Assembly: GCA_016839815.1 (NCBI GenBank)
Contig: JAEOTM010000187.1
Span: forward strand, 37,214-101,213
Direction of reading: 5' to 3'
From: Candidatus Hodarchaeota archaeon
Lineage (GTDB): Archaea; Asgardarchaeota; Heimdallarchaeia; Hodarchaeales; Hodarchaeaceae
DNA: 64,000 bases
This document shows, piece after piece, positions 2,048 through 64,000 of this stretch (positions within the stretch are counted from its first letter, which is position 1; each line of letters opens with the position of its first letter). Below the pieces are notes generated by a model. The model was not told where the DNA came from and searched no databases. It saw only the letters and a program-made list of their open reading frames with translations. A program made the position numbers and the translations under genes.

Positions 2048-2302
2048 TATCGGTGACTTCAAAACTAGAAATGTAAATTTCACTTAGTATATCGACCTAT
2101 TTTTTTTTGCGGAGACTTTCTCTAGGTGAGAGGATTAGGGAATGTATATTAAGATTTAATCACTAAAAAAGCCTAAGACGGATGAATCTTTGATTACGAA
2201 AATGTCCTAAAACGGGATATCCCAATACCTTGTCTAATTTACCCTTATAAGACAACTTCATAATTGAGATTTCGAACTTCTCCAAATCTGATAATAAATA
2301 GT

Positions 2303-5300
2303 ATGATGGAGAGATATATTATGCGACTGAAAGTCTTACGTGTCCAACACATTATGTTGTTAACAGTATTAATGTTAAATGTTTTTGCTTTGATGATTAA
2401 TTTTAATAGTGTATTGGAGGGAGAAGTCGAAGGATTCACTGCAGACCTATTAAGAGGATTTGGAGTACCAATACATAATGAAGATCAAAGTGAATCAGTA
2501 ATCCCGAAATTAACAACTGAATCTCTTAATAAAATTGACGAAAGGAATCAGGTGAACTCTTTTCCCATCACAACATCAAAGATCGTCAATAGTTTTTCGC
2601 TTCCCTCTTGGGGAGGATTGGGTTTTGGGTTTAGGAAAAATATCACAATTGATTCTACTAAAGTTCCTACAGATTTAACTAATTTTCCTTTATTGATTGA
2701 TATGAAAGACGCTCCTGATATCTTTGGTGTTACTCAAGCTTCGGGAAAGGATATTATATTTACTGATTCATCAGGGACGATTTTAGATCATGAAATTGAA
2801 CTCTTTGATGACGATACTTATCATTTAGTTGCCTGGGTGCGCATTCCTTCCCTTTCAAGTAGCCTAGATACACGTATTTCAATGTACTATGGAAATGAAA
2901 CTATTGGTACTCAACAAAATCCCTCTGGTGTTTGGGACAACGACTATATGGCTGTGTATCACTTAAACGATAATCCTAGCTCGACCATCTATGATAGTAC
3001 TTCCAATGATAATGATGGGTCATCATATGGTTCTGTCATTCAAGAAGAGGGACTGATGGGAAATGCTTATTACTTTGATCAACAAGGAGGTACAAATGAT
3101 TATCTACAGATTCCTCAAAGCACTAGTCTTAATCTCGTAGGAAATCAGATGACCTTAGAAGGATGGGTGTACTTACAATTTACTCCTGTACTACATGATT
3201 CCATGGTTTTTGACAAGGCAGGTGATTTTTACAATACTGATGGATGGATGATGGGAGTTGATGGAGAGTACGTATCTGGTGGAGTCGGGTATCCCACACG
3301 GTTAAATCAACGATTAAATACTCAAAATAATCAAGCTATTCGAACAGATAATGGTGCAATTTATCCTGGACAATGGACTTATCTCACAGTAGTTTATAAC
3401 GGTATCACGACATCGTATACTGGTTATATTGATGCTTCAAGTGTTTATAATAATCCAAGCATCAGTGGGAATATTAGACCGGTAGATATGGATCTATTTA
3501 TTGGAAAACGCGATGAAGCTGCAAATCGAGTGTTTTATGGAAGTATGGATGAGCTTAGAATTTCAAATACTACACGATCAACTGGTTATATTACAACCTG
3601 TTATAATAATTACAACGATCCCGATTCATTTTATAGTATCTCCCCTCAAGAACCTAGTTTTTCATTATTTGAAAAACAAAGGACTCTTACAATTGATTCT
3701 TCAATTGTAGCTGGTGGTAGTGATTTAACCAACTTTCCATTACTTTTGAATTTATACCTAGAAAATGCTTCTCAGAATGTGTTGTTCCAAGATGCTTCCA
3801 CCTCTCAAACCCTTGATTATGAGATTGAGCACTTCGATGCAGAATATAACACAAGTCATGGCAGGTTGGTAGTGTGGGTAAAAATTCCGATATTATCTAG
3901 TACAGTTGATACAGAAATTATCATGTTTACAGATTCTACTATAGCACCTGTGACAAGTAATACGAATATCTGGAAAGGATATCGAGGAGTTTGGCACTTG
4001 AGTGAGAGTGTCGTAGATGAGAGTTCAGCAAATAATGTTTACTTTGATGCAACTGGGGAAGGAAGTTTAGGAAATCAGCATGGTAGTGATGATAGTGGGA
4101 GCTCACTTGGTAAAGGAGCAAGTTTTGATGGTACCAATGACTATATCGAAATGGGTTCCCCTAATATCTTGAATCTCAATGATAGTACTGATTCTGGAGG
4201 AATTGATCAAGTTTTTACACTTTCTGGATGGTTTTATCGAGATACCACTGGTACTATTGATGTAATTGTTGATAAATCTCAAGATGGAACTTATCCTAAT
4301 ATTCTAACTGGGTACATGGCATATATCGACTCAGATAACCGATTTAATTTTCGTCTTATGGATGATGATGATGATGGTTACAAAATGATTTCTGCATCAA
4401 CTTATACTAATCCTGGTTGGCATCATTTTGCGGCCACTTTCGATACATGTGGAGGTGGGGGGATATTCACAGAAAGTGTGAATTGGAAATTACTTATTGA
4501 TGGTGTTGATGACACGGGAACAAAAGGAAGTTGGGGTCCAGGTGGAGGAGCATGGGAGTGGATCAATGGTTATCTGCCTAATGATGGTTATTTCACAATT
4601 GGAGCAAATTCCAATAATTCCAATTATTTCGATGGACTTATCGATGAAATTCGTTTGATAGATTCAACCTTATCACCAGATTGGATCGCTACCGAGTATC
4701 GTAACGCCTATAATTTATCATCTTACCTTTCTATTAGCCCTGAAATCGAAAGCCAAAGATTATGGCATGATGATTCATTTGCAAGACGAAAGGATTTGCA
4801 GATCGATTCTTCAGGTTTTCAGGATGCGAATAATGAACATCATATTATACTTCGACCAGGTGCGCGAGGAACAGATTATAATCAATGGGGAGTATCAGGA
4901 GCTAATTATCGGCATGCAGCAGTAGAGGAAGTTATAGCTGACGGTTGGACAACGTATATCACCCATTCTAGTAATAATACCTATCTACGTGAGATGTTCT
5001 ATGCCGTTGGGTTACCTCCCACGACACCAAGTGGAACAATTACTAGTGTGAGGATTTATAGTACAGCAAGGACTTCTGGAGTCGTATCTTCTTATGCATT
5101 TCAACATTATGTGAGAGTAGGCGGATCTAACCAATGGTTTGGATCTCGGGGTCTTAGTGGTTCTTGGATTAAGGATTATGATGAACAAACAACTAATCCT
5201 GTTACTTCTCAACCTTGGACATGGCAGGATTTGGTAGATTTTGAATTTGGAGTCCGTGCTCAAGTTGTAGAAGGTGCTTCTGCAGGATATATTCGTGTAA

Positions 5301-8300
5301 CTCAGGTTTACGCAGTAGTTTCATATATCCCAGACTCCTCTTCTCTCGAAAATTTCCCAATATATCTTGATATCGATGATTCTGATCTTAAAACAGATGT
5401 TCAAGCTAATGGTAATGATATTTGTTTTTATGACGAATACGGCATGTTTCTTGCACATGAAATTGTTGAATTTGATCAAAATTTCAATTCTACTCATGCT
5501 CATTTATCTGCATGGATAGAAATTCCTACTTTATCAACAGGTGGGGATTCCTATATAACAATGTATTATGGAAATTCTACCTTAAGTTCTCAAGAACGAG
5601 CATCTGAAACTTGGGAGGATTTTTTAGCAGTTTATCACTTGGAAGAGGCCCCAACAGGGCCTGTATTAGATAGTACGTCTAATAATTTAGATTTAACCTC
5701 ATCAGGAACAATGACCACTGGTGATTTAGTGGTTGGCCAGATTGGTTCCTCTATTGATTTTGATGGTATTAATGATCAATTATTTACAACCCAAGTTGTT
5801 TCCATAGGGAGTTTCACAATCTCTACTTGGGTTTATTTCGACGCAGGAGTTGGATGGAATACAATTGTAAATTTCGATCGTAGTATTTCTGATTATCGGC
5901 AATTTGCGGTTCAAGATTGGGATCCTCGTTTTGATGGTGCAGGTTATTCCTATCCTTTTGGAGGGCCTTATAGTATTTCCACTTGGTATCATTTAGCTTT
6001 TAGTTACGATGCAAATACAACTGAATTTAACGTGTATGTAAATGGAGCTCTTTCAGGACCAACTCGCTATCTTAACATACCCGATTTAAGTGATGATTTT
6101 CAGTTGGGCGCATGGGGAACAGGTGATTGGTGGGATGGTAAACTAGATGAGATTAGGATTGCTACAGAAAAAAGATCAGAAGCATGGATCAAAGCTGAGT
6201 TTGCTAATCAAGAAAATCCTTCAACATTTATTACTATGGGTCAAGAGGTTGAACTCCTCCCCCCGACAGTGAATTCATTTGGAGTCGATGATCCAGGGAA
6301 CGGGAATCCCACTTTTTGGGCGAATATTACTGATCATGATTCCTCTGTGTCTTTCGTATCTTTTAGAGTAAATTCCTCAGATGAGATGATGTCTAAAAAT
6401 GCCAGTGGTATCTGGACTTATCAGCTACCATCGGTAAATTATGGTGATTATTATACTTATCAAGTTACCAATGCTTCAGATCTTAATGGAAATTATTTGT
6501 CAACAGCTTCCATCATCCGAGATGTCACATTTGACTACGATACCGTCTTACCAACTGTTTTAGATTGGGATTATGACCCCTATAAAGGCGTTAATGGAAC
6601 CTTTAACGCTAATGTTTCCGATAGCTGGGGAACTGTAAATACAGTAATGGTGAATGTGACTGCACATGATAATATGGGTGATTTAAGTGGTTTGTGGGGT
6701 ATAATGAGATATACTCCTGGTGGTTATGTAAATGATACAATTAAAATGCTTTCAGGAACCATTAGTTTTGTTGTTACTGTTACAGATATACGTGGAAATA
6801 GTTTCACGTCAACAGAACATGTATCTATCGTAATTAATCATGCACCAAGTATTGAGAACGTTTTATTATCTCGTGATATATCAAATGAGACACTCCTTCC
6901 AGTCTATAGCAATAGTACTGCGATATATTTGCATTATGATTTCAATGATGTTGATGGAGACTCACAATCAGGTACTCAGATTCGATGGTATAAATGGAAT
7001 GATACTGCCTGGGTGCAACAAGGAGCATATGATGACACTACTCAAGTTCCTCGGACTGCTTTAATTAAAAACGCAATATGGAGAGTTTCAGTTAGACCAA
7101 GAGATGGAATTGACTTTGGAACAACGGTCTACTCTGATAATATAACAATTGAGAATACTGTACCTCTAATTCGAGATCCCATCCTTTCCCCAACTAATCC
7201 AAAGACAGGAAATGATCTTACTGTATCATATACGTGGATTGATGCGGATGCACTGGATACAGATCAATCACTTATTCAGTGGTACAGAGATAATGGAAGT
7301 GGTTATTACTTACTAGACAGTTATACAAATGATACTTTACTTCCCTCAAGTGTTACAATAAAAGGAGATAAGTGGAGGGTTAATGTAACTGCAAGTGACG
7401 GGGATGGATTTGGAAATTGGATTGTAACATTGGAGATTATTATCCTAAATACAGCCCCTACTCTGGACGTAGATATTAATAATAAAACAATTCCTTCTAC
7501 TGTAGATGTCAATGACGATTTAGTTGCGAATTATACGTATTACGATGCCGATGGAGATAGCGAATCCTCGGTCGAGTATCAATGGTTGAAGTTCAATACT
7601 ACAAGTAATGATTTTGAAATCTTTACGACAGGTGTAGATAATATTAGTTATACAAACACTATTGCTGGTGAACTTTGGCGTGTAGAAATAAGAGTTAGTG
7701 ATGGAACAAATACAAGTGGATGGGTTACTTCTGCAACAATGAGTATTGGAGTAGCACCAAATAATCCACCATCAGCAATCAACATAAATCTGACACTAAG
7801 TAATGCTGTAGCAGGGGGATTTTTGTATATTAGCTACACTTTTACTGATCCTAATGGAGATAATGAAACAATTTCTCTTTACAGATGGTATCGAAATAGT
7901 GTATATCAACCCCAATTTGACGGATATCGCAATCTTACAAGTGCATCATTAGTGAAAGGAGATTCATGGTATGCTGAAGTAAGACCAAGAGATGAGCTTG
8001 ATTATGGAAATTGGAGTCAGAGTACGGTTATTGTAATTGGAAACACAGTTCCGACGGTTACTTCGACAGAAATATTCCCATCTGGCGATGCATTTACTAC
8101 AAATGTCCTGGTAGCAAATTATGAAACAAGTGATGTTGATGGAGACACAATTGTCGATTACAAGATTGTATGGAATAAATATAATGGAACTTCTTACGAG
8201 ATAACCTCTCTGGAGAATGAAACTGAAGTTCCTGGCTCTTCTACATCAAAAGGAGATATATGGACTTTTGAGGTTTTCATCTATGATGGAACAGATTGGT

Positions 8301-11300
8301 CATTAGGGGTTACTTCTCTCCAGAAACAAATACGAAATTCCGAGCCAACTATCACTGATATTTCTCTTTCAGGTGGAGAAAATTCGAGTAGAAATATCAC
8401 ATTATCCTATAAATTCGTAGATCTTGATAATGATACTGAATCTGGTACTTCGATTACCTGGTGGATAATTTCAGGTACTGGCCCAACTCAAATCCCAAAT
8501 GATCAATTAGCGTTGATTTTTACATCCTTCGTTGCTGGAGATCTTGTATATGCAGCAATTACCCCTGATGACGGTTCTGGCTCAACTGGTCTATTTTTAA
8601 CTATAGGTCTATCCAATGGCCTGATCATTGTAGGAAACAGTGCTCCCACATTGGATGACGCGCCCAATATCCTAGGACCAAATGATTCCACTTCATTTAC
8701 AGCTGGATTCCCTATTTACGTAAATTATTCTGCCTCAGATCCTGATCATGGAGAAGCTGATGCGATCTATGATATTGAATTAGATGGAGATGGATATGTT
8801 GTTGGTGCAGAATACCAATGGTACAGAAATGATCTTCTTGTTGCTACATTAACGGGTCCAACAGTACCAACCGATTATCTAAGTAAAGGCGATAATTGGA
8901 TGGTGAGAGTGAAACCTCGTGATCGTTATGGTTATTTTGGAGATTGGATAAATTCCTCACTAATAGTAATTGCTAACAGTAATCCTGAAATTTCAGGAGT
9001 AGAGTTTATCACCACTTATTTGACAACCATAATCGATATTCGTGTCCAATTTACTTATTCTGATATTGATGGTGATCCAATCCAAACTGAAAATACTTCT
9101 ATTCTATGGTATCGGAATGGTATCCTAATACTTGGTACAGAAAATCGAACTGTTGTTTCTAGCGAACTAATTGGGGATTCTTATCTCGTCATTATTACCT
9201 TAAACAGTATTAATTATCAGAAAAATGATAATATTTCAGTAACTGTACAGCCATTTGATGGAACTGACTGGTCCACAACAAGTTCCACTAGTAGCGAAAT
9301 TACCGTCCAGAACTCACTTCCAACGGTTTCTAATCTCAATTTGCTCCCTCATAATCGAAGTGGGACAATTATTTACACTACTGATCAAATAAATCTATCT
9401 TGGGTTTATTTTGATCATGATGGAGATAATGAGAGTTCCCCTATTATTATTTGGGAAAGAAACGATGTCATCCAAGGCTTATATAATAACTCATGGTTTA
9501 TTCCTTCAGTAGCAACAGCAAAAGATGAAAAATGGGACGTAATCATACAGACTTTCGATGGTACAAGCTACAGCGTTGGACTATCGATAACTATAATCAT
9601 TACCAATAGTATTCCCACATTAACAGATGTAATATTAGAGAATAATGAAGGTCTTACGAACATTACTTATGCCGATAATGGAATTTCAATTGACTATATA
9701 TACACTGATGCTGATTTTGACTCTGTTGATGAAAATTCGGGTTTCATTCAGTGGTATCGTAATGGTGTACATGTTTCTGTGTTAGACAACCAAACGAGTA
9801 TTTCTGGTAGTGAGCTGGTTAAGGGTGATAATTGGTATGCAGTTGTGCAAATACTAGATCGGGGTGGAGTAGTTTGGTCGAATAATCGTACTTCCCAGAC
9901 AATATTTGTTGTCAATAAAGCACCTGAAGTCATATCTATTCTCATCTTAGAGGAATTGAATCAACTTATTGAAGATGAAAATTTGACATTAATTTTGACA
10001 ATTACTGATCCTGATATTAATGATACTGACGCTTCTCTCATCGAATGGTTGAAAGATGGAATGATTCAACCACAATTTACTAATCAAATAGGAATCTCTT
10101 ATCTTGATACTTCACCAGGTGAAACCTGGACTATCAGAATCACACCATCGGATGGAATAGACAGCGGAGTAATTAGAAACAAATCTTACTTTATTCAAAG
10201 TCGTCCATATATTCAAGATCTAACTACAATTGTTGAGCAAGATACTGATGGCCACTTCACTTTTGGACTTCAGGTAGTCGATGCTTTAAATGCTATTACT
10301 TCAGTCAGATATCGGGTATTTCTTAATGGTAGTGCGCTACCTGAAATTGTCGATACATTAAATTCCCCCAATGCTACTGATTTCTGGAATCTTGACTATA
10401 TCTTATCGGATCCCGCGTACTATAATACTGAACTATTAATAGAAGTTTTAGCCACGTCTGTTCAGGATATTTGGGATCTTCGATTTTTCCATTTCACTAT
10501 TATTGATGGAGTAGCACCTCGTATTTCAACTGCTACAAGTTTAGGAGTATGGTTTGAGAAGAATAGTGACGATCCAACTCATCTATCTTTCTTTGCTGAG
10601 ATTGAAGAATATGGTGCTGGAGTTGCTAACGTCACCTTATATTATTATTACGACCCAGTTGAAGCTGGAGAAGGATCAGCATCCGTACAAGATTTTACGT
10701 CCATTCTTATGACTTTTAATAAATCAACCGGTGCTACTCTTACCTACGCAGTCACAGTTCCTTATCCTCAAGATCAAACCGATTATGAGATCTTGTACTG
10801 GGTTGCTACTCAAGATATGGATGGAAATAGTAATCCTGTGGCCTTTGATATTCGGAACTATCCTGAACGAATTAGTAATGAGAAAATTATCCAACTCACA
10901 ATGGGTGGTCTTCCAGAAGAAGTATTATTTATCGCTGGTGCAGCGGTTCTCTTGATTTTCGTCGGTGCAGTGGTATACGTTCGTTTCATTCGCAAACCAG
11001 AGATTATTGGATTAGACAAGGAACTAGTTATGAAGGGAGTTCCAGGTGTTGGAGACGAGAAAGTTTTTGCTGACATTGACCGACATACGTTGGGACTTGT
11101 AGTCAGCTTCTTCGATCAATTACATGGGCCAATCCCAATAATTGTCATTCCTGAAATGCTTAAGGATAATTATAGTAAGTTAGTGGCACTTTCTGATCGT
11201 TCATTTAGTGGTACTGGATTTAGTGATGATTATACAAGCGAAGTTCATTCCTCTTATGATTTTGTTTTGGCTGAAAAACTCAGGATTAGTGTTATGAGTT

Positions 11301-11578
11301 ATGGGTTCGCCTTAGATAAACCCGATGCTCGTGGTGGCCAAGAGAATCTCACATTAAACATCCTTGTTCATCAAGATATCTTTAATCTCATTGAACAGTT
11401 TAAAGACGAGATCCAAGAAAAAGTACACGAATTTCATATGACTATGGCAGGAGACTCTAGTAATAAGACATTGATTCGAGTAAAGGCGAATGAAGTTAGA
11501 AAATACGTAAGCGCAATTGTTTTGAGCTATGTTGATATTTACGGAACAACAGAGCTTATAAAAGAAGATGAAGAATAA
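2303..11578 (+). CDS. Giant single-pass surface protein: N-terminal signal/anchor, three DUF2341/LamG-like modules, many Ig/cadherin-like repeats, TM helix, cytosolic longin/roadblock-like tail
   Basis: Track ORF 2264-11578 (TTG start); ATG at 2303 or 2321 precedes a hydrophobic signal. Repeats of RKNITIDSTKV..LTNFPLL / YHLNDNP..DSTSN / GWVYL..; then repeated xxWYRNG...KGDxWxVxVxPxDG..GxW units; TM VLFIAGAAVLLIFVGAVVYVRFIRK near 10918-10995; ~190-aa cytosolic tail. Confidence 0.85.
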   Translation: MMERYIMRLKVLRVQHIMLLTVLMLNVFALMINFNSVLEGEVEGFTADLLRGFGVPIHNEDQSESVIPKLTTESLNKIDERNQVNSFPITTSKIVNSFSLPSWGGLGFGFRKNITIDSTKVPTDLTNFPLLIDMKDAPDIFGVTQASGKDIIFTDSSGTILDHEIELFDDDTYHLVAWVRIPSLSSSLDTRISMYYGNETIGTQQNPSGVWDNDYMAVYHLNDNPSSTIYDSTSNDNDGSSYGSVIQEEGLMGNAYYFDQQGGTNDYLQIPQSTSLNLVGNQMTLEGWVYLQFTPVLHDSMVFDKAGDFYNTDGWMMGVDGEYVSGGVGYPTRLNQRLNTQNNQAIRTDNGAIYPGQWTYLTVVYNGITTSYTGYIDASSVYNNPSISGNIRPVDMDLFIGKRDEAANRVFYGSMDELRISNTTRSTGYITTCYNNYNDPDSFYSISPQEPSFSLFEKQRTLTIDSSIVAGGSDLTNFPLLLNLYLENASQNVLFQDASTSQTLDYEIEHFDAEYNTSHGRLVVWVKIPILSSTVDTEIIMFTDSTIAPVTSNTNIWKGYRGVWHLSESVVDESSANNVYFDATGEGSLGNQHGSDDSGSSLGKGASFDGTNDYIEMGSPNILNLNDSTDSGGIDQVFTLSGWFYRDTTGTIDVIVDKSQDGTYPNILTGYMAYIDSDNRFNFRLMDDDDDGYKMISASTYTNPGWHHFAATFDTCGGGGIFTESVNWKLLIDGVDDTGTKGSWGPGGGAWEWINGYLPNDGYFTIGANSNNSNYFDGLIDEIRLIDSTLSPDWIATEYRNAYNLSSYLSISPEIESQRLWHDDSFARRKDLQIDSSGFQDANNEHHIILRPGARGTDYNQWGVSGANYRHAAVEEVIADGWTTYITHSSNNTYLREMFYAVGLPPTTPSGTITSVRIYSTARTSGVVSSYAFQHYVRVGGSNQWFGSRGLSGSWIKDYDEQTTNPVTSQPWTWQDLVDFEFGVRAQVVEGASAGYIRVTQVYAVVSYIPDSSSLENFPIYLDIDDSDLKTDVQANGNDICFYDEYGMFLAHEIVEFDQNFNSTHAHLSAWIEIPTLSTGGDSYITMYYGNSTLSSQERASETWEDFLAVYHLEEAPTGPVLDSTSNNLDLTSSGTMTTGDLVVGQIGSSIDFDGINDQLFTTQVVSIGSFTISTWVYFDAGVGWNTIVNFDRSISDYRQFAVQDWDPRFDGAGYSYPFGGPYSISTWYHLAFSYDANTTEFNVYVNGALSGPTRYLNIPDLSDDFQLGAWGTGDWWDGKLDEIRIATEKRSEAWIKAEFANQENPSTFITMGQEVELLPPTVNSFGVDDPGNGNPTFWANITDHDSSVSFVSFRVNSSDEMMSKNASGIWTYQLPSVNYGDYYTYQVTNASDLNGNYLSTASIIRDVTFDYDTVLPTVLDWDYDPYKGVNGTFNANVSDSWGTVNTVMVNVTAHDNMGDLSGLWGIMRYTPGGYVNDTIKMLSGTISFVVTVTDIRGNSFTSTEHVSIVINHAPSIENVLLSRDISNETLLPVYSNSTAIYLHYDFNDVDGDSQSGTQIRWYKWNDTAWVQQGAYDDTTQVPRTALIKNAIWRVSVRPRDGIDFGTTVYSDNITIENTVPLIRDPILSPTNPKTGNDLTVSYTWIDADALDTDQSLIQWYRDNGSGYYLLDSYTNDTLLPSSVTIKGDKWRVNVTASDGDGFGNWIVTLEIIILNTAPTLDVDINNKTIPSTVDVNDDLVANYTYYDADGDSESSVEYQWLKFNTTSNDFEIFTTGVDNISYTNTIAGELWRVEIRVSDGTNTSGWVTSATMSIGVAPNNPPSAININLTLSNAVAGGFLYISYTFTDPNGDNETISLYRWYRNSVYQPQFDGYRNLTSASLVKGDSWYAEVRPRDELDYGNWSQSTVIVIGNTVPTVTSTEIFPSGDAFTTNVLVANYETSDVDGDTIVDYKIVWNKYNGTSYEITSLENETEVPGSSTSKGDIWTFEVFIYDGTDWSLGVTSLQKQIRNSEPTITDISLSGGENSSRNITLSYKFVDLDNDTESGTSITWWIISGTGPTQIPNDQLALIFTSFVAGDLVYAAITPDDGSGSTGLFLTIGLSNGLIIVGNSAPTLDDAPNILGPNDSTSFTAGFPIYVNYSASDPDHGEADAIYDIELDGDGYVVGAEYQWYRNDLLVATLTGPTVPTDYLSKGDNWMVRVKPRDRYGYFGDWINSSLIVIANSNPEISGVEFITTYLTTIIDIRVQFTYSDIDGDPIQTENTSILWYRNGILILGTENRTVVSSELIGDSYLVIITLNSINYQKNDNISVTVQPFDGTDWSTTSSTSSEITVQNSLPTVSNLNLLPHNRSGTIIYTTDQINLSWVYFDHDGDNESSPIIIWERNDVIQGLYNNSWFIPSVATAKDEKWDVIIQTFDGTSYSVGLSITIIITNSIPTLTDVILENNEGLTNITYADNGISIDYIYTDADFDSVDENSGFIQWYRNGVHVSVLDNQTSISGSELVKGDNWYAVVQILDRGGVVWSNNRTSQTIFVVNKAPEVISILILEELNQLIEDENLTLILTITDPDINDTDASLIEWLKDGMIQPQFTNQIGISYLDTSPGETWTIRITPSDGIDSGVIRNKSYFIQSRPYIQDLTTIVEQDTDGHFTFGLQVVDALNAITSVRYRVFLNGSALPEIVDTLNSPNATDFWNLDYILSDPAYYNTELLIEVLATSVQDIWDLRFFHFTIIDGVAPRISTATSLGVWFEKNSDDPTHLSFFAEIEEYGAGVANVTLYYYYDPVEAGEGSASVQDFTSILMTFNKSTGATLTYAVTVPYPQDQTDYEILYWVATQDMDGNSNPVAFDIRNYPERISNEKIIQLTMGGLPEEVLFIAGAAVLLIFVGAVVYVRFIRKPEIIGLDKELVMKGVPGVGDEKVFADIDRHTLGLVVSFFDQLHGPIPIIVIPEMLKDNYSKLVALSDRSFSGTGFSDDYTSEVHSSYDFVLAEKLRISVMSYGFALDKPDARGGQENLTLNILVHQDIFNLIEQFKDEIQEKVHEFHMTMAGDSSNKTLIRVKANEVRKYVSAIVLSYVDIYGTTELIKEDEE

Positions 11579-11597: not shown

Positions 11598-13793
11598 TTA
11601 ATCACTTTCGAGTAACGATAGATAATGCATCAACTTGTCTGAGGTTTCATCATCTTCAGGGACTTTTTTGGTCTCTAAATCCACTTTTCGTGGAAATTTA
11701 GTCTCTTTACTTCTGACTAGAAATTTGATGATCATTTTGATCATTCGTGCTGCAAAATCCACAGCACCTTCAGATTCTATTGGTAATTGCATGGCTTGGG
11801 ATAACAAACCACTCAATTGAGCAGAATTAACGCTCTCAATAACGTTGACTCTGCCGATTGGATAGCCACGTTGTACAAAATTAATGAGAACACCTCTCTT
11901 TTGAGATTGTTCCACGGAAAAACCGATTTTATCGGTATCAGGGAGAATGACAAATTCTCCATTAGTTTTAATTTCCAAAGGAATGATATAATCAATTGTT
12001 TCCGACAAACTATCTTTCTCAGGCGTTGCAACTACAAGAGGCTGCTCTTTGAGCTTCTTGATGGATTCAAAAATTACTCTTGCCGAAAACGCCATCGAAG
12101 AGACTCCGTCTTCGAAATAACCAACATTAGCTAAATTCATTTCGTAAGCTAGAAGATACAGAATCTCATCTTGATTAATACTCATAGGGATTTGTGAAGT
12201 CCCGATTACTCCCTTCTTTCCTGATGCACCTTGTTGCAGATACAAGCTAATCTGTACATTTGAGGATTCTTCAATTGCCTCGACTTTGAAACTGATACCT
12301 CGTGCCCCAGGTAGAGTAATTGTTCCATCCACAGTCTCTGATTGTAAGGGCATTTCCATTGGAGCAACGGTGGGTTTTTTCACTTTCTCTTTCTTTTCTA
12401 TCTCAGGTTCTAAGTACTTGCTTACAATTTCATCAATTGCTAATTTCGGCCTTTCAACTGCAAAGACCAAGCATTTTATGATCATCTCTTCATCTAATTC
12501 ATTCTTAAGATGAGCTGAGAATATATCTAGTAATCTTTGGCCTGTTAAATTCTTGAATTTCTTTTCTCCTTGGGAAGTCCGAACAAAAGGAATATACTTT
12601 AGAAAGAACTCGGTTAGGAGGGTGACTGGTATACCAGAGGAAGCTGCAATCTTGAATAATTCACCATACCCAGATTTGACAACCTCGGTTGCTTCATCAG
12701 GTTCTATTCCACAGAAATCTACCAAATAAACAATCTGATTGACCACCTCATTAGCATCAGCGGGAGTTTCTGCCTCAACTATTTCTGTAGGTGCAACTAA
12801 TCCATTTTCAGATTCGGTAATAGGAGTTGCTGGCTCTGCGTGATCGACTTGTAGCTCTTGTGTGTCTATTGGGATTGGGGAAACTTCAGTTGGTGTAATA
12901 ACTGGTTCCATAATTGGTTCTGGTTTAACAGTTGAAGTTGTCTTAACTGGTGTGGGAGTAGATGCTGCTGGAGTAGTTGATATTTTAGGTTGTACAGGTG
13001 CGCCCTCTTCCCCTGCAGACTGAGTTGCTTGTTGCATGAGTGATTGCAATTTTTGTAAGACTGCAGGATCACCTGCCATTTTCGGAGCAGTAATTTGAAT
13101 TTTTGAAGCAGTGGAGACTTTGGCCTTAGGTTTGGCTTTCCGAAGGGTCATTCCTTCCCTCTGAAATTCTTCAATTTCACCAATTGTTCTTCCATCAACA
13201 AAATCGCTCTGAGCAATTGTTGGAGTTGCAAGTTCAAATATACGCCCAAAAGCATCAATGACTGTTTCAGGGGTAAAGATAGATGTTCTAAAAAACCGAA
13301 GTGGCTCACTATATTCTAGTTGAAAGCTTTCTTTCAGTTGAGTGTGAACTGATTCATAATTAGGGGAATTTCGTACAAGATCATTCTTGTGTAAGAACAC
13401 AAAGACCTCGGCCTCAGGAGAATAGTTAATAAGTTTCTCAATGGAGGCTTTAAAATACTGAAAAGCATTATTTCGTGTCGTTTTATTTGCTGTATCAATC
13501 AAAAAGATAAATATTTTTACATTGCTAAATACAAACGGACTAAAGGCAGTAAGAAACTTTTTCAAGAATATTTTCTGTCCACCAAGATCCACAATTGTAA
13601 TAGGTGTATCTTTTATGGTCACAGACAATCTTTCATAGTTTATAGTTGCAGAAAGCTTATCAACATCTTCTGTGCGCTGTTTTAAAAAGAAAATTCTCTT
13701 TACTGCCGTTTTTCCGGCTTCCGAGAGGCCAGCTATAAGAATTTTATGCCCCATCTTCTGAGAAATCTCTGCTTCGCTGACCCACTCTGACAT
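11598..13793 (-). CDS. Large Rag/Gtr-like GTPase with C-terminal helical domain and two tandem repeat domains
   Basis: G1 GLSEAGKTA, G3 DLGGQ, G4 HKND (Rag-type HKxD); Pro/Thr-rich linker; conserved middle region; two related C-terminal repeats. Paralogous to 61535-63682. Confidence 0.85.
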   Translation of the reverse strand: MSEWVSEAEISQKMGHKILIAGLSEAGKTAVKRIFFLKQRTEDVDKLSATINYERLSVTIKDTPITIVDLGGQKIFLKKFLTAFSPFVFSNVKIFIFLIDTANKTTRNNAFQYFKASIEKLINYSPEAEVFVFLHKNDLVRNSPNYESVHTQLKESFQLEYSEPLRFFRTSIFTPETVIDAFGRIFELATPTIAQSDFVDGRTIGEIEEFQREGMTLRKAKPKAKVSTASKIQITAPKMAGDPAVLQKLQSLMQQATQSAGEEGAPVQPKISTTPAASTPTPVKTTSTVKPEPIMEPVITPTEVSPIPIDTQELQVDHAEPATPITESENGLVAPTEIVEAETPADANEVVNQIVYLVDFCGIEPDEATEVVKSGYGELFKIAASSGIPVTLLTEFFLKYIPFVRTSQGEKKFKNLTGQRLLDIFSAHLKNELDEEMIIKCLVFAVERPKLAIDEIVSKYLEPEIEKKEKVKKPTVAPMEMPLQSETVDGTITLPGARGISFKVEAIEESSNVQISLYLQQGASGKKGVIGTSQIPMSINQDEILYLLAYEMNLANVGYFEDGVSSMAFSARVIFESIKKLKEQPLVVATPEKDSLSETIDYIIPLEIKTNGEFVILPDTDKIGFSVEQSQKRGVLINFVQRGYPIGRVNVIESVNSAQLSGLLSQAMQLPIESEGAVDFAARMIKMIIKFLVRSKETKFPRKVDLETKKVPEDDETSDKLMHYLSLLESD

Positions 13794-14109
13794 GACAATG
13801 ACCTTATGCCATTAGTTGTGTAAAACTGCTCTAGATGTTTGTTTGAGAATGTTTCTTTTTAGGATTTCTAATTAAATTTTCAGAACATCCTGTTCATTTG
13901 AGATTTTTATTGAGAAAGCTTCTTGAGGAGTAAGTTTTGATTATAGAATTAGTAAATTTTGGTTTAGTCTAGCTACTTTATAAAAAAGTATAAAATTAGA
14001 AAGACTAGATCAAAAAAATATATCACTAGTTTTACATTGAAGAAGTTGTAAAACAAATTTCAATTATCTACCCCAAAACAAGAGAAAAATAAAAGAGGAT
14101 CCGATAACA

Positions 14110-15006
14110 ATGTCTGGAACCGCTGTATCAAAGATTTTATTTATGGGACTCGGTGCTAGTGGAAAAAGTAGTATCCGATCGATCGTATTTGAAGGGAAAT
14201 CCCTTGACGATGTCAAAGATTACAATGCAACGATAAACTATACTCGATCAACCCGAAATATCATAGATTCCGCTTTTCAAATCTTCGATTGTGGAGGTCA
14301 AGAGTCCTTCATTTCTGTATTCGTAGGAGATCAAGCTGAATTCATTTTCAGCAATGTGTCGATTCTTGTCTGGGTTGTAGATGTTTCCAATTTCGATGCT
14401 GTGTCTACATCTAAGTTCTATTTTGATCATGCTGTGAATAGACTCTATCAATACTCTCCAGATGCTGTAATATATACATTATTCCATAAAATTGATTTAC
14501 TTCTGCCTGATATGCGTGAACAGGTTATTGAGACCATGGAATCCTTTTTTACATCAGATAAAGACATTCAGATCTACTATCGTGGGACTTCAATCTATGA
14601 TCAATCAACCTTTGCTGTTGTAGGAGAGATGGTTCAGACACTTATAACGAAGAGTATCAAAGCCAAGACAGTTTCCGAAGCAATTCAAGAATTTGTAAAG
14701 CAGAATGTGGAATTATCAGGTATTGCAATATATTCCGAAGATGGATTGCCAGTATTCGAAGAGGGTGATTTGGCAAAGAAAATTATTCTACCTGCAAATC
14801 TCTGGTTAACAAATTATGAACGTCTCCGAGGGGATTTTCCTGGTAATAATTTTAAAACCACTTTAGAAACCAATGAATTTATGTTTGTTTTTCAACAAAT
14901 TAAAACGGAGATTCTTCTTGCTGGAGTTGCACGCAAAGTATCCCCTCTCCAATATGTGCTTGTGAAAATGGATAAACTCGCCGAAATTGTCGGAGAGCTG
15001 TTATAA
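14110..15006 (+). CDS. RagA/Gtr1-like small GTPase with C-terminal roadblock-like domain
   Basis: MSGTAVSKILFMGLGASGKSSIRSIVFEG; DCGGQESF; LFHKIDLL (HKxD); C-terminal ELSGIAIYSEDGLPVFE as in roadblock/LC7 domains. Matches the eukaryotic Rag GTPase layout. Confidence 0.9.
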   Translation: MSGTAVSKILFMGLGASGKSSIRSIVFEGKSLDDVKDYNATINYTRSTRNIIDSAFQIFDCGGQESFISVFVGDQAEFIFSNVSILVWVVDVSNFDAVSTSKFYFDHAVNRLYQYSPDAVIYTLFHKIDLLLPDMREQVIETMESFFTSDKDIQIYYRGTSIYDQSTFAVVGEMVQTLITKSIKAKTVSEAIQEFVKQNVELSGIAIYSEDGLPVFEEGDLAKKIILPANLWLTNYERLRGDFPGNNFKTTLETNEFMFVFQQIKTEILLAGVARKVSPLQYVLVKMDKLAEIVGELL

Positions 15007-15022
15007 TAGTATAATTAATAAT

Positions 15023-16081
15023 TTAATCAAATAATAAAAGTCCATTCTCGATTTTACATCCAGACATTACATTCGTTTGGATTGCTTGTTGTACAACTCC
15101 CATAATAAATTTTTCAGAGAATCCTACTTCTGATGCTAACAACGTAAAATCAATTGAGGCTTTATTGTTGAATGCATCCAAAATCCTCTTGGCTAGTAAT
15201 CCTCGAATTTTTTTCACTGGAATTGACAAAAATTGATCTAATTCATCAAAATCGAGTTTTCCTGATAATCTAAGTCGATATTGAAGGCCCATATCCGTCT
15301 GTGTTTCTAATCCAGACTTACTTAGTAATTGTTTTCCTACAAAAGGATCAGTAATCATTTCAGCGCGATATAGGTTTCCTCGAGGCATTTTTTTCTTGAA
15401 CTCATCGACAATTCTTCTTATTTTTGTTTTTACGAGAGGAGTAGGTTGATCGCGAAAAATTACCTGAAGCTGAGTTTTTTCCGTATTTACAAGGAGAATC
15501 GGAGCTAATTCAGGAATCATGGAAATATTACTAAAGGCATCAACAGTTTCTGCATCTGTTATATAATATGCATCCATACCAGTATCGATAATCTGAATAT
15601 TTTGGTCTATCTTCTTTAGGATTTCTTGATTATAAAGATCTTTATCATTTACAATATTGTAGACTCGGAGAGTCCTTTTAATCATGAGTTTCAGAAATTC
15701 CGTATATTTACTGATGGAACTTGAGGTAGTAATAATCCAAAAGAATATCATTCGACCAAATTGAGCAATTCTATTGTCCATAGAATCTTTTGCTGCTAAA
15801 GAAAACATGAAAGCCTCTGAGACATAGGGTTCTTTGGGAGTGGGAATTGGTCCATAAGCCCGTACTTCTCCTGGATTAAATGGCTGACTTGTTCCGATCG
15901 CGGTTAATGTTTTTATTGCCATGGTAAAAGCTTCATCATCAGCCAATGGAGAAGAGTTGTAAATGTTCGTGGGTCCCTCATCCTCGAAAACTGTGACTAT
16001 AAGTCCATCTGTCAGTGCTTTCGTACTATCTTTTTGAGTCATTTTTGGAAAACATCCAGAGATTAAACAAATAATTTCCAT
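15023..16081 (-). CDS. Putative longin/roadblock-like protein with C-terminal winged-helix-like segment
   Basis: N-terminal GLIVTVFEDEGPTNIYNSSPL...AFMFSLAAKDSMDNRIAQFGRMIFFWIIT is longin/roadblock-like; C-terminal SIDFTLLASEVGFSEKFIMGVVQQAIQTNVMSGCKIENGLLLFD is wHTH-like. True start may be the internal Met (MTQKDSTK). Confidence 0.5.
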   Translation of the reverse strand: MEIICLISGCFPKMTQKDSTKALTDGLIVTVFEDEGPTNIYNSSPLADDEAFTMAIKTLTAIGTSQPFNPGEVRAYGPIPTPKEPYVSEAFMFSLAAKDSMDNRIAQFGRMIFFWIITTSSSISKYTEFLKLMIKRTLRVYNIVNDKDLYNQEILKKIDQNIQIIDTGMDAYYITDAETVDAFSNISMIPELAPILLVNTEKTQLQVIFRDQPTPLVKTKIRRIVDEFKKKMPRGNLYRAEMITDPFVGKQLLSKSGLETQTDMGLQYRLRLSGKLDFDELDQFLSIPVKKIRGLLAKRILDAFNNKASIDFTLLASEVGFSEKFIMGVVQQAIQTNVMSGCKIENGLLLFD

Positions 16082-56005: not shown

Positions 56006-56097
56006 TATAATAGTTGTTACTCATATGGTAAGAAATAGGCATTAATAACTCTCTTTCTTTGATTTTTGTAGAAGTTTTTTTTTCCGAAGTGGATACT

Positions 56098-58419
56098 ATG
56101 GCTGTAGGTAAACGTTTAAAGCGGAAAGATGCAGATACTAAAGTAACTGGAGAAGCTCCTTATGCATATGATCTTTCATTCGCAGATGAACATTATTTGA
56201 AAGTAATCCGGAGCCCCTATGCCCATGCGCGAATTTTAGAGATAAATATCGATTATAAGAAACTTGAAGCTCTCAATGTTACGTCAGGAACAGTCAAGGA
56301 TATTCCAGAAAAGGGAAAAAATATCTTACATGTGATTCATGATGACTGGCCTTTACTCGCAGAGGAAGTCGTAAGACATGTAGGAGAACCTGTAGTAATA
56401 TTAGTAGGAAAGACATTGAAGTCGGCAGAAGATGCGAGTAAGTATGTATCAATAAAATATGAAGAATTACCAGTAGTATTTGATCCTGTAGAGGCGAAAG
56501 ATCATCCTACCATACACATCTTTGAGGAAAATAACGTTTGTTCCCATTGGCAGCAGAAGAATGGTGATGTCGAAAAGGGATTTGCGGAATCAGATATAAT
56601 AATCGAGAATGAATACCGAACACCAGCGCAGGAACATGCATACATCGAGACTCAAGGGTGTATAGCTGTCCCACAAGGAAATGATTCCATCACTGTATAT
56701 GGAAGTATGCAATGTCCTTTTTATGTCCAGCGGTGTATAGCCGAGGTACTTGGATTAGACTGGAGTAAAGTTAATATTATACAAACAACCACTGGAGGAG
56801 CCTTTGGTGGAAAAGAAGACGTTCCTAATCAAATAGGTAGTCTCGCCGCCCTTGGATCGTGGTTGATTAGAAAGCCAGTGAAATATATTCTGACGAGGGA
56901 AGAAGATATTGAGACAACATCGAAAAGACACCCAGCAGTCATTCGGTACAAAACTGGAATTACAAAAGCAGGTGAACTGAAAGCAATTAAGGTGGAAGTC
57001 TTTCTAAATACAGGAGCTTATGCAACGCTTGCACCCGCTGTTCTTTATCGAGCTGCAATGCATGCAGCTGGGCCATATCGATGTGAAAATGTAGATGTTC
57101 AGGCGTATGCAGTCACAACAAATCTTGTACCTTTTGGAGCGTTTCGGGGCTTCGGTTCTCCCCAAGTTCTATTTCCAGCAGAAGAACAGATGGATCGTGC
57201 CGCTGAAAGCATTAAGATGGATCCAAGCGATTTTCGTGAAATGCATATTCTCAAAGTCGGTGATAAAACTACATTTGGCCAAACATTGCATCAATCTGTG
57301 GGTTTAGAAGAAACTCTAAAGAAAGCACGAGAAGAAAGTGAGTGGTATAAAAAACGAAAACCAACCCCAACTATAAAAGAAGTATTAACTGATCAGAAGA
57401 AAGGAATTTACCGTCGAAGAGGAATTGGGATTGCCACAATATTCTACGGATGCTTCTTAGGAGCAGCAGGGAAGATTATGTCACGATCTGGTGCTTATGT
57501 TCAAGCAGAACCAGATGGAAGTGTTCGATTTGCGGTGGGAACTACAGAAATGGGACAAGGGATGATCACAGTTCTATCCCAGATTGTAGCTGAAGAGCTT
57601 GGAATCGAATATGAAAGAGTTCATATGACCCCTGTAGATACAAGCCGTGTTCCTGATTCAGGCCCGACTGTTGCTAGCCGTGCAACCATTATGTCGGGCC
57701 GTGCACTTCAGAATGCCTGTGAAAAACTTCGTGCCCTCATTTATGAAAAAGTTGCAATGAAATATAATGCAAATACCAGTGATTTACTGATTAAGGATTA
57801 TGAAATTCAAGATCAATCCACACAGAAGGTAATACTCTCAGTTACTGATGCGATAAAGTTAGTTTATCAAGAAAGAGGTCAAGTCGCTGTTGCTGGATGG
57901 GATGTTGCACCATCGACATCTTATGATAACGAAAAGGGGCAAGGAGATGCATATTCAGCCTATGCCTGGTGTACTAATATTGTAGAAGTCGAAGTTGACT
58001 CACAAATAGGAACAGTTGATATTTTAAATATATGGGCTGCTCATGATGTAGGAAAGGCGATAAATCCGCAAACTCTTGAAGGGCAGATAGAAGGAGGAAG
58101 CTTGCAGGGTTTAGGTTACGGACGGTATGAAGAAATTATATTTACACCTAAAGGACGAGTGTTATCCAATAATTTGGGAACATATTTGATCCCCACAACG
58201 AAGGAAACTCCCAAAATTCATTCCATCATTATTGAGGATCCTTGGTCCGAAGGCCCTTATGGAGCGAAAGGAATCGGGGAGCAACCATTAATGGGCATTG
58301 CCCCTGCTCTAACGAATGCTATTACCAATGCTGTGGGTATAAGATTGAATGCAATTCCAGCTACTCCTGAACGAGTGTGGGCGGCTATTCAAGAGAAAAT
58401 TAAGGAGGAAGAAAAATGA
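56098..58419 (+). CDS. Xanthine-dehydrogenase-family molybdenum-binding subunit
   Basis: MAVGKRLKRKDADTKVTGEAPYAYDLSFADEHYLKVIRSPYAHARIL; TTTGGAFGGKEDVPNQIGSLAAL; PFGAFRGFGSPQ; GAKGIGEQPLMGIAPALTNAITNAVG. Internal Met at 56098 fits better than track start 56059. Confidence 0.95.
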   Translation: MAVGKRLKRKDADTKVTGEAPYAYDLSFADEHYLKVIRSPYAHARILEINIDYKKLEALNVTSGTVKDIPEKGKNILHVIHDDWPLLAEEVVRHVGEPVVILVGKTLKSAEDASKYVSIKYEELPVVFDPVEAKDHPTIHIFEENNVCSHWQQKNGDVEKGFAESDIIIENEYRTPAQEHAYIETQGCIAVPQGNDSITVYGSMQCPFYVQRCIAEVLGLDWSKVNIIQTTTGGAFGGKEDVPNQIGSLAALGSWLIRKPVKYILTREEDIETTSKRHPAVIRYKTGITKAGELKAIKVEVFLNTGAYATLAPAVLYRAAMHAAGPYRCENVDVQAYAVTTNLVPFGAFRGFGSPQVLFPAEEQMDRAAESIKMDPSDFREMHILKVGDKTTFGQTLHQSVGLEETLKKAREESEWYKKRKPTPTIKEVLTDQKKGIYRRRGIGIATIFYGCFLGAAGKIMSRSGAYVQAEPDGSVRFAVGTTEMGQGMITVLSQIVAEELGIEYERVHMTPVDTSRVPDSGPTVASRATIMSGRALQNACEKLRALIYEKVAMKYNANTSDLLIKDYEIQDQSTQKVILSVTDAIKLVYQERGQVAVAGWDVAPSTSYDNEKGQGDAYSAYAWCTNIVEVEVDSQIGTVDILNIWAAHDVGKAINPQTLEGQIEGGSLQGLGYGRYEEIIFTPKGRVLSNNLGTYLIPTTKETPKIHSIIIEDPWSEGPYGAKGIGEQPLMGIAPALTNAITNAVGIRLNAIPATPERVWAAIQEKIKEEEK

Positions 58420-58871: not shown

Positions 58872-58879
58872 GTGGTATT

Positions 58880-59683: not shown

Positions 59684-59684
59684 A

Positions 59685-61534: not shown

Positions 61535-63682
61535 TTAGAAAAGCTTTTCATCATCTAGGAGTAGATTTAAATATTCCTTCAGCTTATCCGAGGTCTCTTC
61601 TTTCTTTTCTTCATGTTTTCTGGTAGCTTGCGGGTCTGAAATTTCCTTAAATTGCATGGCGGTTTTTATTGAAGCATGAATAATCTTGCATGCAAATCGG
61701 ACTGATCCCGCTGATTCTATAGGAATTTGCATTGCTTCTTTCAATAATTTTTCAAGTTGGAGCTCTGATATTGTTTCAGAAATGTGTGCCTGTCCAATAG
61801 GAAATCCTCGTTGAGTGAAACTGAGGATAAATCCCTTTTTTACAGATTCTAGATTAAAAGCAACTTTTTCACTATCTGGAAGTAAAAGATTGTTTCCACT
61901 AGTTTCTAACTCGATTGGAATTACAAATTCAACTAGATCCGCTCTAACTCCAGTTTCACTTCGAATTCTTTTTGTAGTGACATCCTTCGTAGAGCTAATT
62001 TTCCTAGCCTTTAACTGTCTGATTGATTCATAAATTATTTTTGCAGCGAAATACATTGATGAAATACCATCTTCAAAAACGCCAATACTCATAAAGTTCT
62101 TTTCATAGGCTAGTAAGTAAAGGATTTCCTCTTCAGTTGCTTCAGACGAAACTAAAGAACTTCCAATCAATTCTTTTTGACCCATACTACTCCGTAGCTG
62201 AAAAGAAATAAGAGCATTAAAACCATCATCAACTAAATCTACTTTAAAGCCCATACCCTGAGTATTTGGTAATGCAATAACCCCTTCGCTGCTTTCCATT
62301 TCAACTGGAACATCTAAATGTGCATATTCTACTGTTTTCTTTTTTACTTCTATCTCTTTCCTTTGAACTATTTCTTTAGAAGGTATGATATATGCTTGAA
62401 CTATTTCTCTTATACTAAATTGTGGTTTTTCAGATGCTAATACTAAGCATTTGACAATATCTTCTTCATTTAATTCTCCCTTAAGAATCAATGAAAATAA
62501 TCCAAGAAGTTTATTGTGATCAATAGTCCGATACTTTTCTTCCCCTTGAGATTTCTCAATAAATGGTAAGTACTTTAAGAATATATCACTTACTAACGGT
62601 ACAGGCATTCCAGAAGTAACACCCATTTCAAATAATTGATTCCATCCACTATTTACAAGTTCATTAGCTTCTCCAAAACCGATACGATAGAATTCAATTA
62701 GGTGATTAACTTCAACCGAACTAGTCGGAGGAGTCAATTGAGGTTCAAATTCTCCAGAAATTTCTTTAAGCGGTGGTGAAGTTAAGCTTTTTGCTTCTAT
62801 TTCTTCTAAATTGGGATCTCTGTGTATTAGGGTTGTTTCTGAAATAGATTCTTCGCTTGCTGCACTACCAAGAAAGACTTTAGCTTCGTCAGAAACATCA
62901 TTAGATGTCTTCAAAGATTGTTTCATAAGAAAACGCAATTTCTCTACAACGGTAGTATCTTCATCCGATTCTGTTGGTATTAGTCGTGTTTGAGCTATGG
63001 TAGCTACTGGTTCAATTTTATCTGCTAGTGTCATCTTAATTTCATGATGTTCCTCTATTTCCCCAATTAATCGGCCATTTACAAAGTCGCTTTGAGAAAG
63101 CTCTGGAAGACAAAGTTCAAAAATTCGTCCAAACGTATCAATAACACTTTCAGGTTTAAAAATTGTGGTTCTAAAAAATTTCAATTGATTTGAACATTCA
63201 ATTTGGAATTGTTCCTTTAATTGCTCATGAATTGATTCATAATTAGGGCTATTTCTAATTAAATCATTCTTGTGTAAGAATACGAAGATATTGGCTGTTG
63301 GAGAGAATTTGTTCAATTTTTCTAAACAAGCTGTGAAATATTGAATTGAGTTATTTCGTGATGTTTTATTTGCAACATCAATTAGAAAAATAAATATTTT
63401 AACATTACTAAATACAAATGGACTAAATCCACTTAGAAACCGTTGTAAAAAGATCTTTTGTCCACCCAAATCGACAATAGTGACTGGTACATCATTCACT
63501 GTGAGAGACAATCTCTCGTAATTAATTGTTGCAGAAAGTTTATTCACGTCTTCGGTTTGCTGCTTTAAAAAGAAAATTCGTTTTACCGCAGTTTTTCCTG
63601 CCTCACTCAAACCAGCAATTAGGATTTTATATCCAAGTTGTTGAGAAATCTCGGACTCCGAAACCCATCGTGACATCTTCAA
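61535..63682 (-). CDS. Large Rag/Gtr-like GTPase with helical domain and tandem C-terminal repeats (paralog of 11598-13793)
   Basis: ILIAGLSEAGKTAVKRIFFLKQ, DLGGQKIFLQRFLSGFSPFVFSNVKIFIFLID, HKNDLIRNSPNYES; same C-terminal layout ending in TSDKLKEYLNLLLDD. Confidence 0.85.
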   Translation of the reverse strand: MKMSRWVSESEISQQLGYKILIAGLSEAGKTAVKRIFFLKQQTEDVNKLSATINYERLSLTVNDVPVTIVDLGGQKIFLQRFLSGFSPFVFSNVKIFIFLIDVANKTSRNNSIQYFTACLEKLNKFSPTANIFVFLHKNDLIRNSPNYESIHEQLKEQFQIECSNQLKFFRTTIFKPESVIDTFGRIFELCLPELSQSDFVNGRLIGEIEEHHEIKMTLADKIEPVATIAQTRLIPTESDEDTTVVEKLRFLMKQSLKTSNDVSDEAKVFLGSAASEESISETTLIHRDPNLEEIEAKSLTSPPLKEISGEFEPQLTPPTSSVEVNHLIEFYRIGFGEANELVNSGWNQLFEMGVTSGMPVPLVSDIFLKYLPFIEKSQGEEKYRTIDHNKLLGLFSLILKGELNEEDIVKCLVLASEKPQFSIREIVQAYIIPSKEIVQRKEIEVKKKTVEYAHLDVPVEMESSEGVIALPNTQGMGFKVDLVDDGFNALISFQLRSSMGQKELIGSSLVSSEATEEEILYLLAYEKNFMSIGVFEDGISSMYFAAKIIYESIRQLKARKISSTKDVTTKRIRSETGVRADLVEFVIPIELETSGNNLLLPDSEKVAFNLESVKKGFILSFTQRGFPIGQAHISETISELQLEKLLKEAMQIPIESAGSVRFACKIIHASIKTAMQFKEISDPQATRKHEEKKEETSDKLKEYLNLLLDDEKLF

Positions 63683-63911
63683 TTTTATCCTTGTGTATTG
63701 AGTGACAATTACAAATCAGAGAAGATTATTATTCAATATATTCATGTTTAACTGTGATTAACATTTTAATAAGACTTCTAATTAACTCATCCGAAATTAA
63801 TTGGGAGAATCTATTTATAATTATTGATATTATCATGCAAATTAGTAATTAGTTAAAATTTCCCTGAAGGTAAATACTTCACTTGAATTCAGAGAAGTGT
63901 TGTGAGTATAA

Positions 63912-64000
63912 ATGCAACAGACTAATCAACCTAATAAAGTATTATTCATGGGATTGGGAGCAAGTGGAAAAAGTAGCATTAGATCGATTGTATTTGAAGG
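63912..64000 (+). CDS. Partial RagA/Gtr1-like GTPase (second copy, truncated by window end)
   Basis: MQQTNQPNKVLFMGLGASGKSSIRSIVFEG; from LFMGLG onward identical to the corresponding part of 14110-15006. Too short for the ORF track. Confidence 0.85.
   Translation, partial: MQQTNQPNKVLFMGLGASGKSSIRSIVFE

What the first reader, a model, noticed from the sequence alone, without database searches (positions are those of the whole stretch)
11598..15006. Divergent Rag-like GTPase gene pair, duplicated in the same window
Seen: a minus-strand ~720-aa Rag-like GTPase and a plus-strand RagA-like GTPase are transcribed divergently at 11598-15006. The same arrangement recurs at 61535-64000, where the compact GTPase is cut off but its first 30 codons share LFMGLGASGKSSIRSIVFEG with copy 1. 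Intergenic gaps are ~316 and ~229 bp. All complete copies use HKxD rather than NKxD as G4, typical of Rag/Gtr GTPases, and DxGGQ as G3. Known: eukaryotic Rags act as obligate RagA/B-RagC/D heterodimers. Inference: each divergent pair encodes an archaeal heterodimer, and the locus has duplicated as a unit.
Basis: partly seen in the sequence, partly recalled or inferred. Interest (0 to 1): 0.9.

Follow-up and report, generated by a model that had tools for sequence, protein, structure and literature searches.

The report
Archaeal Rag GTPase pair with receptor
In a close archaeal relative of eukaryotes, two different Rag-type switch proteins (the kind that tells our own cells whether nutrients are available) are kept next to each other whatever their gene orientation and often beside a giant cell-surface protein, which suggests a membrane-signalling unit that can now be tested in the laboratory.

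Summary
The window lies in a Heimdallarchaeia genome and carries a divergent pair (731-aa large, 298-aa compact) of Gtr1/RagA-domain GTPases. A second large copy (715 aa, 51% identical) ends the window with its compact partner cut off by the contig end. The head-to-head pair recurs at 14 loci in 10 of 12 genomes of the genus, and the two genes duplicate and diverge together. In another family of the order they are adjacent in tandem; in two other families of the class, adjacent but convergent. The tree gives two old GTPase lines, one of each at every sister locus. New here: the pair often lies beside a giant single-pass membrane protein whose cytosolic domain is longin-like (weak Folliculin similarity), and in this genus also beside a longin/winged-helix protein. 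The classic RagA-RagC heterodimer is only partly supported: the compact protein has a weak roadblock-like C-terminus, but the large one has no detectable roadblock; it carries a GatE (Glu-tRNA(Gln) amidotransferase) helical-tail domain plus a duplicated domain. Relation to eukaryotic RagA versus RagC is unresolved. Best reading: a membrane-anchored two-GTPase module, a new variant of known Asgard Rag systems.

The parts
2264..11578 (+). Giant single-pass membrane protein (3104 aa): N-terminal hydrophobic segment, ectodomain with DUF2341 and Laminin_G_3 domains and Ig-like repeats, one C-terminal TM helix, 199-aa cytosolic domain
   Evidence: homologues beside the Rag pair in three families of the class
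10979..11578 (+). Cytosolic longin-like (Folliculin-like) domain of the membrane protein
   Evidence: alignment A6; Folliculin PF11704 is the most frequent Pfam match, 9 of 19 members, best E 0.0017, weak
11598..13793 (-). Large Rag-type GTPase, copy 1 (731 aa): Gtr1_RagA G domain, low-complexity linker, GatE-tail-like helical domain, two beta-beta-beta-alpha-alpha repeats
12399..12755 (-). GatE helical/tail-like domain of large copy 1
   Evidence: other members E 1.7e-8 to 1.4e-5 to GatE
13794..14109 (.). 316-bp intergenic region between the divergent genes, with blocks conserved in four species (TTTCTTTTTAGGATTTCTAATTAA-like; AAAAAGTATAAAATTA-like)
   Evidence: promoter role inferred
14110..15006 (+). 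Compact RagA-like GTPase, copy 1 (298 aa): Gtr1_RagA G domain plus about 110-aa roadblock-like C-terminal domain
15023..16081 (-). Longin-like domain plus C-terminal winged helix (352 aa), convergent with the compact gene
   Evidence: beside the compact gene in 7 genomes of the genus and in the G013 operon (L089)
61535..63682 (-). Large Rag-type GTPase, copy 2 (715 aa)
62372..62725 (-). GatE helical/tail-like domain of large copy 2
63683..63911 (.). 229-bp intergenic region, copy 2
63912..64000 (+). Compact RagA-like GTPase, copy 2, first 30 codons, cut off by the contig end

Best explanation
The locus encodes a membrane-anchored signalling module built on two unlike Rag-type GTPases. SHOWN: two old GTPase lines (compact = type I, large = type II) are kept together through changes of gene orientation, are duplicated and diverge together, and often lie beside a giant single-pass surface protein with a conserved cytosolic longin-like domain and, in this genus, beside a longin/winged-helix protein. 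INFERRED: the surface protein binds something outside the cell (its ectodomain has LamG, DUF2341 and Ig-like domains). Its cytosolic longin domain, perhaps dimerised with the longin/winged-helix protein as in FLCN-FNIP or NPRL2-NPRL3, acts as platform and nucleotide-state regulator (GAP- or GEF-like) for the GTPase pair. The compact protein is the switch with a roadblock-type tail. The large protein is the partner or output arm that recruits effectors through its extra C-terminal domains; in this genus these include a domain from the tRNA-binding end of GatE.
For: Divergent pair at 14 loci in 10 of 12 genomes of the genus. Same two lines adjacent in tandem in G013 (L089) and convergent in 18 genomes of two other families. 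Type II clade 92/86, type I as a clade not opposed (AU 0.53). Mirror-tree r 0.77, 0 of 5000. Membrane-protein gene immediately upstream of the large gene in 21 genomes of the two other families, directly beside the pair at 7 of 14 loci of this genus, and beside another compact paralogue plus longin/winged-helix gene in G006 (L142). Membrane proteins have one C-terminal TM helix and 187-209 cytosolic residues. Folliculin is the commonest Pfam match of the cytosolic domain (9 of 19, best E 0.0017). Compact tail: best PDB matches are Roadblock/LC7 proteins, weak SLM4 and LAMTOR5. Longin-like order of strands and helices in the 352-aa protein, and Foldseek top matches a Loki longin domain and SEA/FLCN/GATOR1 chains.
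Against: No physical interaction is shown. Longin and roadblock assignments are weak one by one, and both AF2 models have low confidence (mean pLDDT 50 and 45). At half of the genus's pairs (copy 2 included) the membrane-protein gene is not adjacent. Two genomes of the genus (one only 1.4 Mb) lack the divergent pair. The large protein has no detectable roadblock domain. Gene neighbourhood alone cannot give the direction of signalling.
Confidence: 0.55

Rival explanations
1. The two GTPases form a RagA-RagC-like obligate heterodimer through roadblock tails, directly ancestral to the eukaryotic pair.
For: Two lines, one of each per locus; the MK-D1 Rag-like pair in an operon was modelled as a heterodimer through roadblock domains (PMC10933270); Rag-type motifs intact.
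Against: Large proteins of this genus have no detectable roadblock domain; the extra domain of the other families' large proteins matches neither roadblock nor the compact tail. Grouping of the two lines with eukaryotic RagA and RagC respectively is neither favoured nor rejected.
Confidence: 0.2
2. Each GTPase works as a homo-oligomer; the genes are neighbours because they share a promoter region or regulator, not because the proteins bind each other.
For: LokiRagO (PDB 8yl2) is a homotetrameric RagA-like GTPase. The divergent genes share a 316-bp region with conserved promoter-like blocks.
Against: A shared promoter cannot explain convergent pairs in two other families. Adjacency outlives changes of orientation.
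Confidence: 0.2
3. The genes sit together only as inherited linkage or local tandem duplication, without functional tie.
For: Both are paralogous GTPases, and Asgard genomes hold dozens of them (33 PF04670 hits here).
Against: The tree puts the split of the two lines before the split of the families, so recent duplication is unlikely; neighbours outside the module differ between families while the module stays.
Confidence: 0.05

Closest known systems
Eukaryotic Rag/Gtr GTPases (RagA/B-RagC/D, Gtr1-Gtr2) with Ragulator and FLCN-FNIP/GATOR1
   Same: Gtr1_RagA G domains with HKxD; two unlike GTPases; longin-type proteins genetically tied to them; membrane platform (inferred)
   Different: Large partner lacks a detectable roadblock tail and has GatE-like and duplicated domains; the platform would be a giant single-pass surface protein, not LAMTOR; orthology to RagA versus RagC unresolved
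Asgard Rag-like GTPases (MK-D1 operon pair, Tran et al. 2024, PMC10933270; LokiRagO, PDB 8yl2)
   Same: Rag-like GTPases with roadblock tails, one gene pair adjacent
   Different: That pair is in an operon and is modelled as joined by roadblock domains; no surface protein or GatE fusion mentioned in the passages read; LokiRagO is a homotetramer
NPRL2-like and FLCN-like longin proteins (NPRL2-like longin is a listed Asgard family in PMC9834061)
   Same: Longin-like fold; longin plus winged helix layout recalls NPRL2/3 (that layout from general knowledge)
   Different: Family membership not reached by any profile cut-off; one version is the cytosolic end of a giant membrane protein
MglA-MglB of bacteria (Ras-like GTPase plus roadblock regulator)
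   Same: GTPase beside a roadblock/longin-type platform
   Different: Single GTPase, no giant membrane protein, different GTPase family
GatE (archaeal Glu-tRNA(Gln) amidotransferase)
   Same: Helical/tail domain shared with the large GTPase (E down to 1.7e-8)
   Different: Catalytic cradle absent

Membership tests
Rag/Gtr GTPases | Gtr1_RagA G domain above Pfam cut-off | tested here: met
   105, 126 and 111 bits against cut-off 22
Rag/Gtr GTPases | HKxD as G4 and intact G1, G3, G5 | tested here: met
Rag/Gtr GTPases | C-terminal roadblock dimerisation domain, compact protein | tested here: inconclusive
   Full-length profile aligns through the Gtr1 tail; tail alone best matches Roadblock/LC7 at E 0.065
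Rag/Gtr GTPases | C-terminal roadblock dimerisation domain, large protein | tested here: not met
   No roadblock match; GatE-like domain and repeats instead
Rag/Gtr GTPases | Obligate heterodimer | not testable with these tools
   No multi-chain prediction offered
Rag/Gtr GTPases | Two lines corresponding to RagA/B and RagC/D | tested here: inconclusive
   Two archaeal lines found, but link to each eukaryotic line p-AU 0.37-0.39 and eukaryotes-together p-AU 0.40
Folliculin/longin family (cytosolic domain of the membrane protein) | Folliculin or longin profile clearly matched | tested here: inconclusive
   9 of 19 members match PF11704, best E 0.0017; no PDB sequence match
NPRL2/3-like longin plus winged helix (15023-16081) | Longin fold followed by winged helix | tested here: inconclusive
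   Predicted order of strands and helices fits; winged helix pLDDT 65-84, rest about 50; Foldseek top match Loki longin 8yqg, E 0.015
GatE | Helical/tail domain | tested here: met
   reverse profile search finds true GatE proteins
GatE | Catalytic cradle domain | tested here: not met
   Only profile positions about 431-584 of 630 match

The most novel reading that the evidence does not exclude
A transmembrane receptor whose cytosolic Folliculin-like longin domain directly controls a heterologous Rag GTPase pair, one member of which carries a GatE-derived tRNA-contacting domain: a cell-surface and perhaps Glu/Gln-tRNA-linked Rag pathway in archaea that predates the lysosomal Ragulator/FLCN system.
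Probability: 0.25. Interest if true: 0.92.

Novelty: new variant of a known kind. Interest (0 to 1): 0.72.

Why it matters
Where the Rag heterodimer and its longin/roadblock regulators came from is an open question of eukaryote origins. Here, in an archaeal class close to eukaryotes, two unlike Rag-type GTPases are tied by gene position to longin-type proteins and to a surface protein, so named partners can be expressed and tested. The GatE-domain fusion offers a concrete, checkable link between a Rag-type GTPase and tRNA-dependent amino-acid metabolism.

Tried and rejected
PADLOC: no defence family. Pfam on the GatE-like region alone: nothing, though NCBIfam and PDB profile searches find it. 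Profile-profile comparison of the compact tail with the extra domain of the other families' large proteins: no similarity, so I do not claim a roadblock tail there. Longin of membrane protein against longin of 15023-16081: E 0.0014 but probability only 18%. Literature: no open-access paper found that describes this locus; absence from the library is not proof. Assembly duplication rejected: 51% identity between copies.

Full report
WHAT IS THERE. The window is contig C168:37214-101213 of a 4.24-Mb Asgard metagenome-assembled genome (89.5% complete). The closest named genomes are Hodarchaeota/Heimdallarchaeota MAGs (YT2_065, MAG_8, B3_Heim). The two divergent pairs are as described: 11598-13793 (-) with 14110-15006 (+), and 61535-63682 (-) with a compact gene from 63912 that the contig end cuts. 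All are Gtr1_RagA proteins by a wide margin with intact nucleotide motifs and HKxD. The two large copies are 51% identical.

CONSERVATION OF THE PAIR. In the genus (12 genomes) 10 carry the head-to-head pair, at 14 loci. Large and compact distances correlate (r = 0.77; 0 of 5000 permutations) and both trees give the same copy-1 clade (G000, G005, G002, G007) and copy-2 clade (G005, G006, G001). So the pair was duplicated and inherited as a unit. In another family of the order (G013, L089) the probable orthologues (362 and 308 aa) lie in tandem with a homologue of 15023-16081. In two other families of the class (f4, f7) a large (550-690 aa) and a compact (406-432 aa) Rag-type GTPase lie tail to tail in 18 genomes (counted by hand from coordinates; in most of the remaining genomes with the large gene the contig ends). 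Adjacency thus survives three orientations, which a shared promoter cannot explain.

TWO LINES. A maximum-likelihood tree of the G domains puts the large genes of all loci together with one gene of a separate Rag operon (OP2 on C182) (92/86 after removal of long rows), while the compact genes fall with the other gene of that operon (OP1); type I as one clade is not opposed (AU 0.53). Each sister locus holds one of each. Eukaryotic RagA/Gtr1 and RagC/Gtr2 cannot be placed: together, or each with one archaeal line, are all acceptable (AU 0.37-0.40).

NEIGHBOURS. Directly beside the pair lies a giant membrane protein: 2264-11578 in the window, 3104 aa, with an N-terminal hydrophobic segment, DUF2341, Laminin_G_3 and Ig-like domains, a single C-terminal TM helix and 199 cytosolic residues. 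Homologues with the same C-terminal part (187-209 residues) stand immediately upstream of the large gene in 21 genomes of f4/f7 and beside 7 of the 14 pairs of the genus (hand count). In G006 another member is divergent from a compact paralogue with its longin/winged-helix neighbour (L142). Among 197 Asgard genomes the cytosolic domain is found in 34, all but one weak hit within this class. Its commonest Pfam match is Folliculin (9 of 19 members, best E 0.0017), and its sequence pattern fits a longin fold (my reading, not modelled). The compact gene's other neighbour, 15023-16081, has a longin-like N-terminus and a winged-helix C-terminus; the weak model's best PDB matches include a Loki longin domain and chains of SEA, FLCN and GATOR1 complexes, none below E 0.01. 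The fold evidence is weak; the gene association is strong.

THE LARGE GTPASE. Residues about 10-200 are the G domain. No roadblock domain is detected after it. Residues about 320-470 match the helical/tail end of GatE: PDB 1zq1 E 6.7e-4, NCBIfam GatE 7.5e-5 for copy 1 and 1.7e-8, 4.5e-6 and 1.4e-5 in relatives; the reverse search finds true GatE genes (657 and 651 aa, E < 1e-190). Two similar segments follow (about 487-583 and 602-695) with predicted order beta-beta-beta-alpha-alpha. The large proteins of f4/f7 have instead a different domain of about 140 aa and a long acidic/proline-rich tail. The GatE end contacts tRNA in the known enzyme (general knowledge); whether it does so here is untested.

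THE COMPACT GTPASE. G domain plus about 110 residues whose two best PDB matches are Roadblock/LC7 proteins over nearly the full length (E 0.065 and 0.67), with weak SLM4 and LAMTOR5 Pfam matches: consistent with a Rag-type tail, not proof.

MECHANISM. The best reading is a membrane-anchored two-GTPase module: surface protein as input, longin domain(s) as platform and regulator, compact GTPase as switch, large GTPase as partner and output arm. Adjacency, co-duplication and domain layouts are shown; binding, GAP/GEF action and direction of signal are inferred. Homo-oligomers remain possible, since LokiRagO (8yl2) is a homotetramer.

KNOWN BACKGROUND. Tran et al. 2024 (PMC10933270) describe Rag-like GTPases fused to roadblock or longin domains in MK-D1 and one operonic pair with a predicted roadblock-mediated heterodimer. 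NPRL2-like longin and Gtr1/RagA proteins are listed Asgard families (PMC9834061). The pairing idea is therefore not new; the class-wide two-line locus, the giant membrane protein with the longin-like cytosolic end, and the GatE-domain fusion I did not find described.

Noticed in passing
L045 6855-10598 (contig C182 of the same genome; also L091, L092, L093): Conserved operon of a Rag-type GTPase (310 aa), a longin-like protein (268 aa), a GTPase relative with an altered P-loop region (351 aa) and a second Rag-type GTPase (334 aa): one member of each line, both about Gtr length; a good candidate for a canonical Asgard Rag heterodimer.
   Followed up: partly
L046 776-3854 (contig C198): Another head-to-head pair of GTPases, 467 and 469 aa, sisters of each other, with N- and C-terminal extensions; similar clusters on G004 C485 and G011 C430/C173.
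   Followed up: no
L082 13102-18892; L087 12419-18177; L077: Next to copy-2 type pairs: a tubulin/FtsZ-family protein (PF00091), a protein of about 1140 aa without a confident Pfam match that looks coiled-coil, and a soluble protein of about 312 aa with a possible longin-like end; likely continuation beyond the window's contig end.
   Followed up: partly
L116 2510-3277, L120 14398-15132, L122 15060-15842: In the f4/f7 families a further GTPase-like protein (about 250 aa, GDGNTGKT, MPGQ, GTHLD) sits upstream of the membrane protein.
   Followed up: no
window 56059-60548: Molybdenum hydroxylase-like (XdhA/B/C-like by sequence reading) gene cluster downstream of copy 2, kept in the same place in G005 (L082).
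   Followed up: no
window 60581-61282: Bactofilin/FapA-like 233-aa protein between that cluster and copy 2 (sub-threshold Pfam).
   Followed up: no
G002:C87:16350-16958 (-): An open frame of 8821 aa holds the same cytosolic longin-like domain, an exceptionally large archaeal protein if intact.
   Followed up: no
L144 8579-17998; G034 C13: In some f4 genomes two membrane proteins with the longin-like end stand in tandem before the large GTPase gene.
   Followed up: no
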